DNA from: Aquibium microcysteis
Lineage (GTDB): Bacteria > Pseudomonadota > Alphaproteobacteria > Rhizobiales > Rhizobiaceae
Direction of reading: 5' to 3'
Assembly: GCF_014495845.1 (NCBI RefSeq)
Contig: NZ_CP061080.1
Span: forward strand, 609,001-673,000
Length of the DNA: 64,000 nucleotides
This document shows, piece by piece, positions 9,744 to 18,630 of the stretch (position 1 is its first letter; every line of letters starts with the position of its first letter). The notes beneath the pieces were generated by a model, which saw nothing but the letters and a program-made list of their open reading frames with translations, ran no database searches and was not told where the DNA came from. The position numbers and the translations under genes are program-made.

Positions 9744-10841
9744 ATGTTTGCGCATGCCCGTAAGCTGCTGGCCGCCACCGCGGTCGCCACCGTCGCGCTG
9801 ACCCTGTCGGCGCACGCCGCCGATCTCATCATCTCCACCGGCCTCGGCAAGCCGCATCTGTGGGTCGGCGCCCATATGGACCCGTTCGCCGATGCCATCG
9901 AGAAGGGCAGCAACGGCGACGTCAAGTTCACGCGCTTCTATGCCGGCGAGCTGACCTCGGTCGGCCGCGAGCTCGACGCGCTGACGAGCGGGACGATCTC
10001 GGTCGCCGCACCGCTGCTCGCCCCCTATCACGAGGGCCGCTTCCCGCTGTCCGACGTGACCCAGCTTCCGACCTACGGTACGGATTCGCCCATGGTCACG
10101 CGTGCCTTCCAGAAGCTCCTGGACTCCGAGGCCAAGATCAAGGGCGACCAGACCTTCCACGATTACGAGATCGCCTCGAAGGGGATCCACGTCTGGGCGC
10201 TCGGCGCCACCGCGCCCTATTCGATCTCGACCGTGAAGAAGGTGCTGAAGGAGCCGGCCGACTTCAACGGCGTGCCGCTGCGGGCCGGCTCGGCCCTGCA
10301 CACCATCATGCTGGAGAAGCTCGGCGCGACGCCCGTCACCATGCCCGGGTCGCAGGCCTTCGAGGCCGCCTCGCGCGGCACCATCGAAGGGCTCGTCATC
10401 GCCATCTCCGACTGGCCGTCCTATTCGCTGCAGCAATTGCTGCGCCATTCGATCGTCGACGTCTCGATCGGCCACTGGGAGAGCTACCTGGCGATCAGCG
10501 ACCAGGCCTGGAACGACCTCACCGACGACCAGAAGGCGCTGTTCGACAAGACGGCGCGCGAGGTCGCCCTGACCAATGCGCAGGAATGGGAGGCACGCGT
10601 CGGCACGGTGCGCGATGAATCCATCGCCAAGGACGGCGGCGAGTTCACCTCCATCAACGACCTGTCGCCGGCGATGAAGGCGCATGTCGAGACCGCGGCG
10701 GCCGAGACCTGGAAGGCCTGGATCGAGAAGACCGAGGCCAACGGCCATCCGGCCCGCGCCACCGCGAAGCTCTATGCCGAACTGATCCAGGCCGAGGGCG
10801 GCAAGCTGCCCGCCGGCGTCGCCGAATATCTGGCGCAGTGA
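9744..10841 (+). CDS. TRAP transporter substrate-binding protein (DctP family)
   Basis: The 365-residue periplasmic protein starts MFAHARKLLAATAVATVALT, a signal peptide cleaved after SAHA. The DctP core shows VPLRAGSALHTIMLEKLG, with the arginine that clamps the substrate carboxylate near residue 180, then PVTMPGSQAFEAASRGTIEG. Ligands of this family are carboxylic acids. The ATG at 9744 follows GGGAGGGAAC; longer in-frame forms lack a signal peptide at their N-terminus. It heads the operon supplying the acyl-CoA enzymes downstream. Confidence 0.93.
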   Translation: MFAHARKLLAATAVATVALTLSAHAADLIISTGLGKPHLWVGAHMDPFADAIEKGSNGDVKFTRFYAGELTSVGRELDALTSGTISVAAPLLAPYHEGRFPLSDVTQLPTYGTDSPMVTRAFQKLLDSEAKIKGDQTFHDYEIASKGIHVWALGATAPYSISTVKKVLKEPADFNGVPLRAGSALHTIMLEKLGATPVTMPGSQAFEAASRGTIEGLVIAISDWPSYSLQQLLRHSIVDVSIGHWESYLAISDQAWNDLTDDQKALFDKTAREVALTNAQEWEARVGTVRDESIAKDGGEFTSINDLSPAMKAHVETAAAETWKAWIEKTEANGHPARATAKLYAELIQAEGGKLPAGVAEYLAQ

Positions 10842-10846
10842 TCGTC

Positions 10847-10877
10847 GCGGCGCCGGGGAACTGACCCGCGGCGCCGC
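10847..10877 (+). terminator. GC hairpin between dctP and dctM
   Basis: The 9-bp arms GCGGCGCCG and CGGCGCCGC (10847-10855, 10869-10877) flank a 13-base loop in the 62-base gap after the binding-protein gene, with no T-run. It probably stabilises or partly attenuates the transcript so that binding protein outnumbers permease. Confidence 0.45.
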
Positions 10878-10903
10878 TTCATTCTCCGAACCGGAGACCG
10901 GGA

Positions 10904-15968: not shown

Positions 15969-17186
15969 ATGTTTGCAGAACTCTCCCCGCACGCGGCCGC
16001 GCTGCGGGAACGGCTCATCGCGTTCATGCGCGAGCACGTCTATCCGAACGAACGCGCGCTTCTCGAGCCGCCGCCGGAGGCGGAGAAATGGCAGCCGCGG
16101 CCGCTCGCCATGGACCTTATGGAGAAGGCGAAGGCGCAGGGCCTGTGGAACCTGTTCTACCATCACGGTCCGGAGGGGCAGGGGCTGTCGAACTTCGAGT
16201 ATTCGCAGCTCTGCGAGATTCTCGGCCGTTCGCTCGCCGCGCCCGAGATCTTCAACTGCAACGCGCCCGACGTCGGCAACATGGAAATCCTCGCCACCTA
16301 TGGCAGCGAGGCCCAGAAGGAGCGCTGGCTGAAGCCGCTGCTGTCGGGAGAGATCCGCTCCTGCTTCGCCATGACCGAGCCGCAGGTGGCCTCCTCGGAC
16401 GCGACCAACATCGAGACCGCGATCCGGCGCGACGGGGACCACTACGTCGTCAACGGCCGCAAATGGTGGGCGACCGGCGCGCCGTCGGCGCGGTGCAAGG
16501 TGGCCATCGTCATGGGCAAGAGCGATCCGTCCGCCCAGAAGCACAGGCAGCAGACGATGATCCTGGTGCCGATGGACGCGCCGGGCGTGCGGGTGGTGCG
16601 CCCGCTCAGCGTCTACGGCTACGAGCATGCGCCGCTCGGCCACGCCGAGATCGTCTTCGAGGAGGTGCGCGTGCCGGCCGAAAACGTGCTTCTGGGAGAG
16701 GGGCGCGGCTTCGAGATCGCGCAGGGCCGGCTCGGCCCCGGCCGCATCCACCACTGCATGCGCTTCATCGGTCTGGCCGAGCGGGCGCTGGAGATCATGT
16801 GCGAACGGGCGCGCTCGCGCCGCGCCTTCGGCTCGACGCTGGCCGAGATGGGCGGCGTGCGCCAGGCGATCGGCCAATCGCGCTGCGACATCGAACAGGC
16901 CCGGCTGGTGACGCTGAAGGCGGCCTGGACCATGGACAGGCTCGGCAACAAGGCCGCCCGCAACGAGATCGCGGTCGCCAAGATCGTCGTGCCGGAGACG
17001 GCCGGCCGCGTCATCGACCGCGCCATCCAGGTGCATGGCGGGGCAGGGCTGTCGCAGGATTTCTTCCTCGCCGAAGCCTTCGCCGAGACCCGCTTTCTGC
17101 GCATCGGCGACGGTCCCGACGAGGTGCACCGCGAGGCGTTGGCGCGCGTCGAACTGTCGAAGTCCCTGGAAGGAGCCGCCGCATGA
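15969..17186 (+). CDS. Acyl-CoA dehydrogenase (ACAD10/11/LvaC-like)
   Basis: The 405-residue flavoprotein has FAD/substrate motifs CFAMTEPQVASSDATN near residue 130, RFGLAE-type RFIGLAERALEIM near 265, RRAFGSTLAEMGGVRQ near 285, and the C-terminal IQVHGGAGLSQDFFLAEAF and GDGPDEVHREAL. The GPDEVH ending is characteristic of the ACAD10/11 branch, which acts on 4-hydroxyacyl-CoA-derived substrates. It is 11 bases after the ligase stop and overlaps the MaoC start. Confidence 0.92.
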   Translation: MFAELSPHAAALRERLIAFMREHVYPNERALLEPPPEAEKWQPRPLAMDLMEKAKAQGLWNLFYHHGPEGQGLSNFEYSQLCEILGRSLAAPEIFNCNAPDVGNMEILATYGSEAQKERWLKPLLSGEIRSCFAMTEPQVASSDATNIETAIRRDGDHYVVNGRKWWATGAPSARCKVAIVMGKSDPSAQKHRQQTMILVPMDAPGVRVVRPLSVYGYEHAPLGHAEIVFEEVRVPAENVLLGEGRGFEIAQGRLGPGRIHHCMRFIGLAERALEIMCERARSRRAFGSTLAEMGGVRQAIGQSRCDIEQARLVTLKAAWTMDRLGNKAARNEIAVAKIVVPETAGRVIDRAIQVHGGAGLSQDFFLAEAFAETRFLRIGDGPDEVHREALARVELSKSLEGAAA

Positions 17187-17629
17187 GACCGCTCGTCATC
17201 GGAGAGACCGTCGAGACGGCCGGCCGCACCATCGGCGAGGGCGACGTCACCCTGTTCGCCGGGCTGGTCGGCGACTTCACGCCGGTCCACGTCGACGAGA
17301 CCTTCGCGCGGTCGACCCCGCACGGGACCCGCATCGCGCATGGTCCGCACTCCATGGCGACCGCGATCGGCATGGCGACGCATACCGGCCTGTTCGGGGC
17401 GCGCGTGATCGGCCTCGTCAACATCACCTGGGATTTCTCGGGCGCGGTGAAGATCGGCGACACGATCCGCTCGCGCGTCACGGTGGAGGACGTCCGTCCG
17501 ACGTCGAAGCCGGGGCGGGGTCTCGCGACCTACGCCTTCGAGGTCCTGAACCAGAACGATCAACCGATCCAGCGCGGCCGCATGAAGGTGGTCGTCGTGC
17601 TGGACGAGCCGCAGGAGGCGAAGCGATGA
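17183..17629 (+). CDS. MaoC-like (R)-enoyl-CoA hydratase
   Basis: The 148-residue single hot-dog domain has the hydratase-2 motif: VHVDETFARSTPHGTRIAHG, with the catalytic Asp and His near residues 38 and 53. It would hydrate a 2-enoyl-CoA to the 3-hydroxy form, the step after the dehydrogenase. It overlaps genes on both sides by 4 bases. Confidence 0.92.
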   Translation: MRPLVIGETVETAGRTIGEGDVTLFAGLVGDFTPVHVDETFARSTPHGTRIAHGPHSMATAIGMATHTGLFGARVIGLVNITWDFSGAVKIGDTIRSRVTVEDVRPTSKPGRGLATYAFEVLNQNDQPIQRGRMKVVVVLDEPQEAKR

Positions 17630-18630
17630 GCGACAGATACATCATGCGGCCGGAGCACGAGTTCAACCACGTGCCGGACGCCTCGCCGAACTTCAACGAA
17701 AGCGTCTACACCAACGCCTTCGACCCGGTGAACGCCTTCGGTGGCTGGATGCGGCTCGGCAACCGCGTCAACGAGGGGTATGCCGAACTGTCGGTGTGCC
17801 TCTATCTGCCCGACGGCCGCATCGCCTGCCAGTTCCAGCGGCCGGCGATCACCGCCAACGACCGGTTCGAGGCGGGCGGCATCACCTACACGGTCAACGA
17901 GCCGCTGAAGAGCGTGACCATGCGCTATGACGGCGACTTCATCATCGTCGACGATCCCGACGACCTGCGCAATCCGCAGGAACTCTTCGCCCGCGGCCCG
18001 CGCCTGCCCGGTCACGTGTCCTGGACCCACGAGGCCGAATCGCCCGTCCACGGCGGCGAGCCGGCGGACGACAGCGTGCAGACCATGTACGGGCGCGATT
18101 TCTCGCTCGGTCATTTCAACCAGCACGGCCGCGCCCGCGGCATCATCAGGGTGGGCGACGAGAGCTGGGAGATCGACGGCCGCGGCTGGCGCGACCATTC
18201 CTGGGGCCCGCGCTACTGGCAGGTCATCTATTTCTACCGCCTGTTCATCGCCAACTTCCCGAACGGCGACGGCCTGATGCTGCTCAAGATCACCGACCAG
18301 GCCGGCAAGGTCCGCCGCCAGGGCGTGCTGCTCGTCGACGGCCAGTACGAGGAGGTGCTCGATCTGGAGGTCCAGACCGACTGGACCGCCGATCGCGACC
18401 CGGCCTTCGTGCGGCTCGGCGTGATGACGAAGCAGCGCAAGGTGCGCATCGACGTCGAGATCCTGAAGCTCGCGCCGCTTCGCAACCGCCGCAAGACCGA
18501 AGAGGGCGTCCTCGTGTCGCGCATCGCCGAAGGCTTCTCCCGCTTCACCTGGGGGGACCAGACGGGCGTCGGCATGACGGAATACATCGAGCGGATCGAG
18601 GACGGAGCCTACGTCGGCTATCCGCTCTAG
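17626..18630 (+). CDS. DUF7064-like/hydroxyneurosporene-synthase-like protein of unknown function
   Basis: The 334-residue soluble protein is rich in aromatic and beta-forming residues and contains GRGWRDHSWGPRYW near residue 185, a motif I associate with DUF7064/DUF7065 proteins related to CrtC-type lipocalin-like folds. No signal peptide is evident. It overlaps the MaoC gene by 4 bases and is last in the TRAP/acyl-CoA operon, so it probably belongs to the same pathway, for example as a second hydratase or lyase. The function is unassigned. Confidence 0.8.
   Translation: MSDRYIMRPEHEFNHVPDASPNFNESVYTNAFDPVNAFGGWMRLGNRVNEGYAELSVCLYLPDGRIACQFQRPAITANDRFEAGGITYTVNEPLKSVTMRYDGDFIIVDDPDDLRNPQELFARGPRLPGHVSWTHEAESPVHGGEPADDSVQTMYGRDFSLGHFNQHGRARGIIRVGDESWEIDGRGWRDHSWGPRYWQVIYFYRLFIANFPNGDGLMLLKITDQAGKVRRQGVLLVDGQYEEVLDLEVQTDWTADRDPAFVRLGVMTKQRKVRIDVEILKLAPLRNRRKTEEGVLVSRIAEGFSRFTWGDQTGVGMTEYIERIEDGAYVGYPL

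What the first reader, a model, noticed from the sequence alone, without database searches (positions are those of the whole stretch)
9744..18630. TRAP-coupled cassette resembling the 4-hydroxyacyl-CoA kinase (LvaA/B/C, ACAD10/11) pathway
Genes in the order TRAP P-M-Q, APH-fold kinase, small unrecognised protein, acyl-CoA ligase, ACAD10/11-type dehydrogenase (GPDEVH ending), MaoC and DUF7064-like are joined by 4-base overlaps. In Pseudomonas putida levulinate catabolism, kinase LvaA with small partner LvaB and dehydrogenase LvaC convert 4-hydroxyvaleryl-CoA via a phosphorylated intermediate. The ketoacyl-CoA reductase LvaD is missing here, so the natural substrate may be a hydroxy acid (or its lactone) imported directly. 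The MaoC and DUF7064-like genes are not part of the lva scheme and would make this a variant pathway.
Basis: partly seen in the sequence, partly recalled or inferred. Interest (0 to 1): 0.78.

Follow-up and report, generated by a model that had tools for sequence, protein, structure and literature searches.

The report
Kinase and phosphate-lyase hydroxy-acid degradation operon
This is a regulated set of bacterial genes that probably imports a hydroxylated acid, tags its hydroxyl with phosphate and then removes the phosphate to leave a double bond; the kinase has a probable small helper protein encoded beside it, and one gene of unknown function looks like a phosphate-removing enzyme.

Summary
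The gene order at 9744-18630 is real; 4 of its 8 junctions are 4-base overlaps. The dehydrogenase belongs to the ACAD10/11-LvaC subfamily and keeps its four special active-site residues. (1) The kinase lies outside the ACAD10/11 kinase clade, in a branch where 47 of 48 sampled kinases have a small protein encoded next door (split support 99/95). (2) The small protein (13836-14312) is not DUF6285 by Pfam; it founds its own family, with only weak profile evidence of kinship to DUF6285. (3) The DUF7064 protein is a full-length remote homolog of 25-phosphosteroid lyase (hhalign 98%; top Foldseek hit) and keeps its Asp motif, so it is a candidate second phosphate-eliminating enzyme. Such genes lie near 14 of 16 SMALL-type kinases and, within the flanks held, near none of 44 DUF6285-type or partnerless ones. 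(4) In several relatives the unit extends through an ABC importer with a permease-propeller fusion, or sits beside an Atu-like acyl-CoA carboxylase module. (5) A TetR operator, unique in this genome, lies at the divergent promoters. Best reading: ATP-dependent removal of a hydroxyl from an imported, CoA-activated hydroxy acid; 4-hydroxyacyl-CoA is the likeliest substrate class, untested.

The parts
8832..9503 (-). TetR-family regulator, divergent from the operon
   Evidence: Pfam TetR_N; relatives at 51-84% in the same place in L039-L043, L045, L048, L176
9540..9564 (.). TetR operator candidate ATGAATTATGAGTCACCGTTCATTT (imperfect palindrome)
   Evidence: Like site in 9 of 9 TetR-bearing loci examined (these nine also made the matrix), absent from L044, L046, L047, L159, L178 and no convincing site in L177; unique in the 6.1 Mb genome at up to 3 mismatches, the two matches being the two strands of one palindrome
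9568..9595 (+). Promoter-like TTTACA-16-TAGCAT just downstream of the operator; a second one on the other strand (9571-9544) overlaps it
   Evidence: Consensus scan of 9400-25800: 4 found, 1.1 expected
9744..10841 (+). TRAP solute-binding protein
   Evidence: Pfam DctP 104.6 bits
10904..12214 (+). TRAP large permease
   Evidence: Pfam DctM 212 bits
12227..12757 (+). TRAP small permease
   Evidence: Pfam DctQ 64.6 bits
12754..13839 (+). APH-fold kinase KIN; catalytic-type Asp 235 (HGDFRIGN) and Asp 253
   Evidence: Pfam APH 98 bits; residues; tree
13836..14312 (+). SMALL, 158 aa, four main predicted helices; kinase partner candidate of a new family with KPLFAEIA near its end
   Evidence: No Pfam; 314 homologs; conservation; model pLDDT 85; directly after the kinase in every locus held
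14338..15957 (+). Acyl-CoA ligase
   Evidence: Pfam AMP-binding 218.6 bits
15969..17186 (+). ACAD10/11-LvaC-type dehydrogenase; Arg254, His262, Arg265, Asp381 match ACAD11 R626, H634, R637, D753
   Evidence: 460 bits to ACAD11 8V3U, best ordinary ACAD 148 bits; residues
17183..17629 (+). MaoC-type hydratase
   Evidence: Pfam MaoC_dehydratas 71 bits
17626..18630 (+). DUF7064/DUF7065 protein, remote homolog of 25-phosphosteroid lyase; Asp190 in WRDHSWG
   Evidence: Foldseek 9FZN E 4.6e-13; hhalign probability 97.6%; motif
18836..19810 (+). ABC permease (ribose type)
   Evidence: Pfam BPD_transp_2; 70-86% orthologs downstream of the cassette in L039, L040, L042, L043, L176
19842..20864 (+). ABC sugar-type binding protein
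   Evidence: Pfam Peripla_BP_4
20914..23061 (+). ABC permease fused to a strictosidine-synthase-like/SMP-30 propeller
   Evidence: Pfam BPD_transp_2 + SSL_N + Str_synth + SGL in one 715-aa frame; 77-88% orthologs
23058..24152 (+). Possible second propeller protein (NHL repeat)
   Evidence: Weak Pfam NHL 20.5 bits; the Sulfitobacter protein is 51-52% identical to it and to those of L039, L040, L043
24076..25650 (+). ABC ATPase (the true start probably lies after 24076)
   Evidence: Pfam ABC_tran

Best explanation
A TetR-controlled catabolic operon removes a hydroxyl group by phosphorylate-then-eliminate chemistry. The TRAP system imports a (hydroxy) carboxylate, and the ABC system, where present, imports a second form, possibly a lactone that the fused propeller opens. 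The ligase makes the CoA thioester. The kinase, together with its small partner, phosphorylates the hydroxyl, most likely at C4. Phosphate is then lost through the ACAD10/11-type dehydrogenase to give a 2-enoyl-CoA, and/or through the 25-phosphosteroid-lyase-like DUF7064 protein. MaoC hydrates the enoyl-CoA for beta-oxidation. In relatives, and elsewhere in this genome, an Atu-like gamma-carboxylating module could take over 3-methyl-branched products. Shown: family membership, motifs, conserved linkage, a conserved operator-like site. Inferred: every reaction, the partner's function, the regulation and the substrate.
For: ACAD: 460 bits to ACAD11 and the four subfamily residues. Kinase: in a branch where 47 of 48 sampled kinases have a small neighbour gene (one of them fused), split support 99/95. 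SMALL follows the kinase in all loci held, whether found through SMALL or through the kinase, and one locus (L047) has just kinase-SMALL-ACAD. DUF7064: the top Foldseek matches are 25-phosphosteroid lyase, hhalign to that group 97.6%, score 90.5 against a maximum of 25.2 in 100 shuffles, Asp motif invariant in 12 of 12 and changed to Asn in the product-bound entry 9G4C. DUF7064/PSL-like genes lie within 7.5 kb of 14 of 16 SMALL-type kinases (two of these share one gene), 5 of 5 with other small partners, 0 of 22 DUF6285-type, 0 of 22 partnerless, 0 of 4 haloarchaeal. Of 12 genomes with such a gene among 299 sampled, 9 have an APH-type kinase in the same neighbourhood; five of the 12 (window included) were already in the query alignment, and of the seven new ones 4 have the kinase. 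The operator-like site is conserved and unique in the genome.
Confidence: 0.66

Rival explanations
1. A plain LvaABC-type 4-hydroxyacyl-CoA pathway: kinase plus small partner plus ACAD do the whole job, and DUF7064 and MaoC are accessory.
For: ACAD has the LvaC/ACAD10/11 residues; L047 keeps only kinase-SMALL-ACAD; LvaA and LvaB are reported to interact and to be needed together (passages of PMC6692424).
Against: The kinase is outside the ACAD10/11 kinase clade; DUF7064/PSL-like genes are more constant beside this kinase than the ACAD is (14 versus 9 of 16); the small protein is not DUF6285 by Pfam.
Confidence: 0.2
2. ATP-dependent dehydration of a tertiary or remote alcohol of an isoprenoid or ring compound, as in the 25-hydroxysteroid kinase/25-phosphosteroid lyase pair: KIN plus DUF7064 make the alkene, and the ACAD acts on a different intermediate.
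For: Loci with kinase, small partner and lyase-like gene but no ACAD of this type: L044, L046, L159, L177, L178 and all five other-small-partner loci; Atu-like module beside 8 of 11 assessable loci; the carboxyltransferases of such modules are of the MCC/GCC lineage with Ala or Gly at a position that I infer to be the MCC Phe site.
Against: A ligase and an ACAD10/11-type enzyme with intact active site are in the same operon; the Phe-site mapping rests on numbering, not on a direct alignment to geranyl-CoA carboxylase; overall the carboxyltransferase scores nearer to MCC than to GCC (589 against 443 bits).
Confidence: 0.25
3. The kinase acts on a non-CoA small molecule (resistance or signalling), and its position beside beta-oxidation genes is incidental.
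For: Similarity to hygromycin and macrolide kinases in the PDB list, up to 30 bits.
Against: These rank below 3ATS, 3DXP, 9O56, 9FSG and the ACAD11 kinase domain (85 to 50 bits); conserved linkage to ligase, ACAD and DUF7064 over several genera.
Confidence: 0.05

Closest known systems
[quoted passage not shown]
   Same: APH-fold kinase, a small protein directly after it, LvaC-type dehydrogenase, CoA ligase; kinase-small-ACAD order seen in L047.
   Different: TetR instead of LvaR (listed as a sigma54-dependent protein in the passages), no LvaD reductase, TRAP and ABC import, MaoC and DUF7064 added, small protein not DUF6285 by Pfam. LvaA/LvaB sequences were not compared directly; that LvaB is DUF6285 is recalled.
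Mammalian ACAD10/ACAD11 (kinase and dehydrogenase fused)
   Same: Dehydrogenase domain: same subfamily and active-site residues.
   Different: Kinase from another clade, separate genes, extra small partner.
25-Hydroxysteroid kinase and 25-phosphosteroid lyase of anaerobic sterol degradation
   Same: Kinase then phosphate elimination; DUF7064 protein is a full-length remote homolog of the lyase with its Asp motif.
   Different: 25-HSK was purified as a single recombinant protein (passages); here the kinase belongs to the small-partner branch, and a ligase and ACAD are present.
Rv3168-Rv3169 (TetR Rv3167c) in M. tuberculosis
   Same: TetR gene divergent from a two-gene operon with an Rv3169-family (DUF7064-like) gene (passages of PMC5340868; NCBIfam Rv3169_fam). 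That Rv3168 is the APH-fold kinase of PDB 3ATS is recalled.
   Different: No small partner, ligase or ACAD in the passages seen; the 3ATS kinase falls on the partnerless side of the tree.
Atu (acyclic terpene utilization) and Liu pathways
   Same: AtuA, enoyl-CoA hydratase and ACAD beside the cassette in 8 of 11 assessable loci, with carboxylase subunits in the four whose stretch reaches that far.
   Different: Not in this window; in this genome AtuA, carboxylase, hydratase and ACAD genes lie at 2.88-2.89 Mb.

Membership tests
ACAD10/11-LvaC dehydrogenases | Sequence nearer to ACAD11 than to other acyl-CoA dehydrogenases | tested here: met
   460 bits (8V3U) and 457 (2WBI); 4HR3 425; best ordinary ACAD 148
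ACAD10/11-LvaC dehydrogenases | HCMR motif with upstream Arg and catalytic Asp (R626, H634, R637, D753 of mouse ACAD11) | tested here: met
   Arg254, His262, Arg265, Asp381 (residue roles from passages)
ACAD10/11-LvaC dehydrogenases | Phosphate elimination from 4-phosphoacyl-CoA | not testable with these tools
   Needs enzyme assay
ACAD10/11-type 4-hydroxyacyl-CoA kinases | Falls in the ACAD10/11 kinase clade | tested here: not met
   Window kinase is on the other side of a 99/95 branch from the ACAD11 kinase domain
LvaA | Direct relation to P. putida LvaA | not tested
   No LvaA sequence obtained; the original paper is not held
LvaB | Small protein encoded directly beside the kinase | tested here: met
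   All loci held
DUF6285 (PF19802; recalled as the LvaB family) | Pfam match | tested here: not met
   No match at E up to 10; none in the own genome
DUF6285 superfamily | Remote profile similarity above controls | tested here: inconclusive
   hhalign probability 2.8%, 6.4%, 7.6% and 14.8%; shuffles as high 3 of 200 and 0 of 150 with an extended set; DUF6285 HMM 5 bits or more on 69 of 138 SMALL proteins, none of 89 control ORFs, 64 of which were scored
lva operon | LvaD-type reductase in the cassette | tested here: not met
   None among the nine genes; an SDR sits beside the cassette in relatives
25-phosphosteroid lyase family | Fold and full-length homology | tested here: met
25-phosphosteroid lyase family | Leave-out HMM recognition | tested here: inconclusive
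25-phosphosteroid lyase family | Asp in the RD[HR]SWG motif | tested here: met
   Asp190; invariant in 12 of 12 aligned; Asn in product-bound 9G4C
25-phosphosteroid lyase family | Lyase activity | not testable with these tools
   Needs enzyme assay

The most novel reading that the evidence does not exclude
There is a widespread, unnamed dehydration module made of an APH-fold kinase, a small partner protein that marks one whole branch of the kinase family (several mutually unrecognised small families, haloarchaeal ones included), and a DUF7064/DUF7065/Rv3169-family phosphate lyase. The cassette here is a version that has added an ACAD10/11-type dehydrogenase, so two different phosphate-eliminating enzymes serve one kinase, feeding an Atu-like carboxylase route for 3-methyl-branched hydroxy acids or gamma-lactones.
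Probability: 0.4. Interest if true: 0.75.

Novelty: new variant of a known kind. Interest (0 to 1): 0.6.

Why it matters
It gives a testable activity (phosphate elimination) to DUF7064/DUF7065/Rv3169-family proteins, which carry no function in the Pfam and NCBIfam descriptions seen here. It suggests that a small partner gene is a clade-wide trait of one half of the relatives of the 4-hydroxyacyl-CoA kinases rather than an oddity of LvaB. It also points to a general use of ATP to remove hydroxyl groups in catabolism of hydroxy acids or lactones, so far described for levulinate, mammalian 4-hydroxy acids and anaerobic sterol side chains.

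Tried and rejected
SMALL as DUF6285: no Pfam match; hhalign with 32 SMALL sequences gave probability 6.4%, with 138 sequences 2.8% and 3 of 200 shuffles as high. Adding bridging partners (L159, L176-L178) raised it (7.6% to DUF6285, 14.8% with L108 added, 41.7% to the haloarchaeal partners) but not to proof. Circular rotations of the alignment were tried as a control (23 of 28 scored as high) and set aside, because they keep the matched segment.

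The 262-bit match of profile A5 to 25-phosphosteroid lyase does not hold for the window protein by itself: the leave-out test shows that this score comes from the other eight members. The case for the window protein rests. Likewise five of the twelve rows (window, L159, L160, L161, L175) are members of A5.

The third protein search brought no distant SMALL relatives into view in the 120 listed of 414. A class-wide search with the SMALL profile (289 genomes) found only the own gene with confidence (next best E 0.0044). Papers on abscisic acid catabolism gave no lead to the substrate. The TRAP binding protein's nearest solved relatives were not used, because the call does not show their ligands.

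'Partnerless' means that no small partner was seen by the ORF and HMM scan; L105 is the one partnerless kinase on the partner side. Flanks differ: about 2.5-6 kb for many kinase loci, 10 kb for the named ones, so absences are for those flanks. The HMM was built from eight window-type proteins plus L177 and L178, so those loci are in it. L048 ends inside SMALL, L045 ends inside DUF7064 and L046 begins near the kinase. L103/L104 repeat L041/L040 and were dropped from the tree; L010/L011 are short stretches of the same two genomes. Kinase rows in the tree were picked by similarity to the window kinase, not at random. The AtuA identity threshold in the co-occurrence count was chosen after seeing the list.

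Full report
What is there. The window holds nine same-strand genes from 9744 to 18630 in the order reported: TRAP P, M, Q, APH-fold kinase (KIN), a 158-aa protein (SMALL), acyl-CoA ligase, acyl-CoA dehydrogenase, MaoC and a DUF7064/DUF7065 protein. Four of eight junctions are 4-base overlaps. A divergent TetR gene (8832-9503) precedes them. The window lies at 609001-673000 of a 6.11 Mb single-contig genome.

Conservation. SMALL has 314 homologs at E up to 1e-3, none of the 120 listed with a Pfam domain, and an almost invariant end, KPLFAEIA (17 diverse members). A scan of named genomes found ten loci, from Prosthecomicrobium, Mesorhizobium, Tianweitania, Bradyrhizobium, Chachezhania and MAGs. 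In every one the kinase directly precedes SMALL, as in the two relatives L010 and L011 (these two are short stretches of the L041 and L040 genomes). Loci found the other way, through the kinase, also have SMALL or a distant SMALL: L159, Sulfitobacter plasmid L176, L177 and both kinases of Variovorax plasmid L178. The rest varies. L047 has only kinase-SMALL-ACAD; L044 and L046 lack the ACAD; L044 also lacks the ligase; L039 lacks MaoC and L176 has a MaoC gene upstream instead; the TRAP genes are present in L039-L043 and L176 but not in L044, L045, L047 or L048. Of 61 genomes searched (own plus 60 relatives), 3 (own, G034, G036) hold a close ortholog of the kinase and none of the four genus mates does, so the cassette is accessory.

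Dehydrogenase. The best solved relatives are ACAD11 (8V3U 460 bits, 2WBI 457 bits) and 4HR3 (425), then ordinary ACADs at 148 bits or less. The residues that PMC12440821 (passages) gives as special to ACAD10/11 and LvaC (R626, H634, R637, catalytic D753) correspond to Arg254, His262, Arg265 and Asp381 here (mapping from the alignment, allowing for a one-residue shift of numbering; positions).

Kinase. In a 74-row tree and a more careful 73-row tree, kinases with a small partner (SMALL 16, DUF6285 22 of which L094 is a fusion, haloarchaeal 4, other small 5) plus one without (L105) are on one side of a branch (48 rows, support 99/95). The ACAD11 kinase domain, 3ATS, 9FSG, 9O56 and 21 partnerless bacterial kinases are on the other side. 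SMALL-type kinases form one group (100/99). The order of the groups within the partner side is not resolved (75/33 for leaving the haloarchaeal ones outside). So the kinase is not an ACAD10/11 kinase ortholog, but it belongs to the half of the family with small partners, which is where LvaA with LvaB would be expected. PMC6692424 (passages) says that LvaB is 12 kDa, pulls down with LvaA, and that both are needed on levulinate; it also says that P. citronellolis has an LvaA homolog without LvaB. LvaA itself could not be placed.

SMALL and DUF6285. Pfam finds no DUF6285 in SMALL, and the own genome has none, nor have 121 genomes of the family; 25 of 299 in the phylum sample do. DUF6285 sits beside or fused to an APH kinase in the 20 loci L076-L095. 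Profile comparison is weak and depends on the set. As a population, 69 of 138 SMALL proteins score 5 bits or more with a DUF6285 HMM against none of 89 control ORFs, of which 64 were scored; the 138 are related, so this is not 138 independent tests. I call kinship likely but not shown. AlphaFold2 gives four main helices at pLDDT 85; fold searches are uninformative.

Linkage of kinase and lyase. Within 7.5 kb: lyase-like genes at 14 of 16 SMALL-type kinases (L047 lacks it; L048 is cut; the two L178 kinases share one), 5 of 5 with other small partners, 0 of 22 DUF6285-type, 0 of 22 partnerless, 0 of 4 haloarchaeal. ACADs with the HCMR motif, in the same order: 9 of 16, 0 of 5, 9 of 22, 16 of 22, 0 of 4. 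In 299 genomes sampled across the phylum, 12 have a lyase-like gene. Nine of these have an APH-type kinase in the same neighbourhood: the window, L159-L161 and L175 (these five are in the query profile), and L217, L218, L221, L222. Three (L216, L219, L220) do not. The M. tuberculosis operon Rv3168-Rv3169 behind TetR Rv3167c (passages of PMC5340868) has a like layout; the family link is NCBIfam Rv3169_fam (43 bits for the window protein, below cut-off; 263 bits for the Variovorax protein), and that Rv3168 is an APH-fold kinase (3ATS) is recalled.

The wider unit. An ABC block (permease, sugar-type binding protein, permease fused to a strictosidine-synthase-like/SMP-30 propeller, NHL-type protein, ATPase) follows in the window and, as far as the stretches reach, in L039, L040, L042, L043 and L176, not in L041, L044 or L047; L045, L046 and L048 are cut. 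An Atu-like block flanks L041-L045, L047, L048 and L176: AtuA, hydratase and ACAD in all eight, an SDR in seven (only a 35% match in L047), biotin carboxylase genes in L044, L045, L047 and L176, whose stretches reach that far. It is absent from the 5-9 kb upstream of TetR in the window, L039 and L040; L046 is cut. The own genome and L040's genome hold it elsewhere. All 3 kinase-bearing genomes of 61 have an AtuA homolog of at least 64% identity, and 5 of the 58 others have one of at least 49% (Fisher one-sided 0.0016; few events, relatedness ignored). The own genome's carboxyltransferase matches MCC at 589 and GCC at 443 bits. PMC4673880 (passages) says Phe in MCC and Gly in GCC sets substrate size; that position, inferred from numbering only, is Ala in 6 and Gly in 1 of 7 such modules, two of which come from genomes without this kinase.

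Regulation. The gap between TetR and the first gene of the operon carries a palindromic site in 9 of 9 TetR-bearing loci, with a second copy just before the kinase in L042, and none convincing in six loci without this TetR. It is the only site in the own genome at up to 3 mismatches. Promoter-like sequences lie on both strands there.

How it probably works. The model in Best explanation follows: import, CoA activation, phosphorylation by KIN with SMALL, phosphate elimination, hydration. The absence of a keto-reductase is explained if the substrate arrives as hydroxy acid or lactone. What stays open is why two phosphate-eliminating enzymes are kept: in sequence on one substrate, on two substrates, or with one of them changed in function.

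Verdict. The reported cassette is real and its main idea is half right. It is best filed as a new variant of kinase-dependent hydroxyl removal, with a new partner family and a new candidate lyase family.

Noticed in passing
20914-23061: A ribose-type ABC permease is fused in one frame to a strictosidine-synthase-like/SMP-30 propeller, conserved at 77-88% in five relatives; a lactonase tied to import is a possible reading.
   Followed up: partly
L178:5209-9394: Variovorax plasmid with two kinases, each followed by its own distant SMALL-like protein, and one clear Rv3169-family protein between them.
   Followed up: partly
L180, L195, L196, L197: Haloarchaeal plasmids encode a small protein directly before the kinase and near an acyl-CoA dehydrogenase gene; its profile aligns with the extended SMALL set over 66 columns.
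   Followed up: partly
L094:3810-5294: Kinase and DUF6285 fused in one 495-aa frame; a 464-aa frame of G392 also holds both matches, which suggests direct kinase-partner contact.
   Followed up: no
L160, L161, L175, L108, L199: Further small proteins of 118-150 aa without names, encoded beside kinases and near lyase-like genes.
   Followed up: partly
L096 and L097 (own genome, 2.58 and 3.58 Mb): Three more kinases, each near an HCMR-type ACAD gene, without small partners, in the same genome.
   Followed up: no
5121-8835: Upstream minus-strand genes: VOC protein conserved beside TetR in L040, L041, L043 (and near the cassette in L047), DsbA-type thioredoxin-domain protein, enoyl-CoA hydratase, NMT1-type binding protein.
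   Followed up: partly
27022-30852: Vitamin B12-dependent class II ribonucleotide reductase.
   Followed up: no
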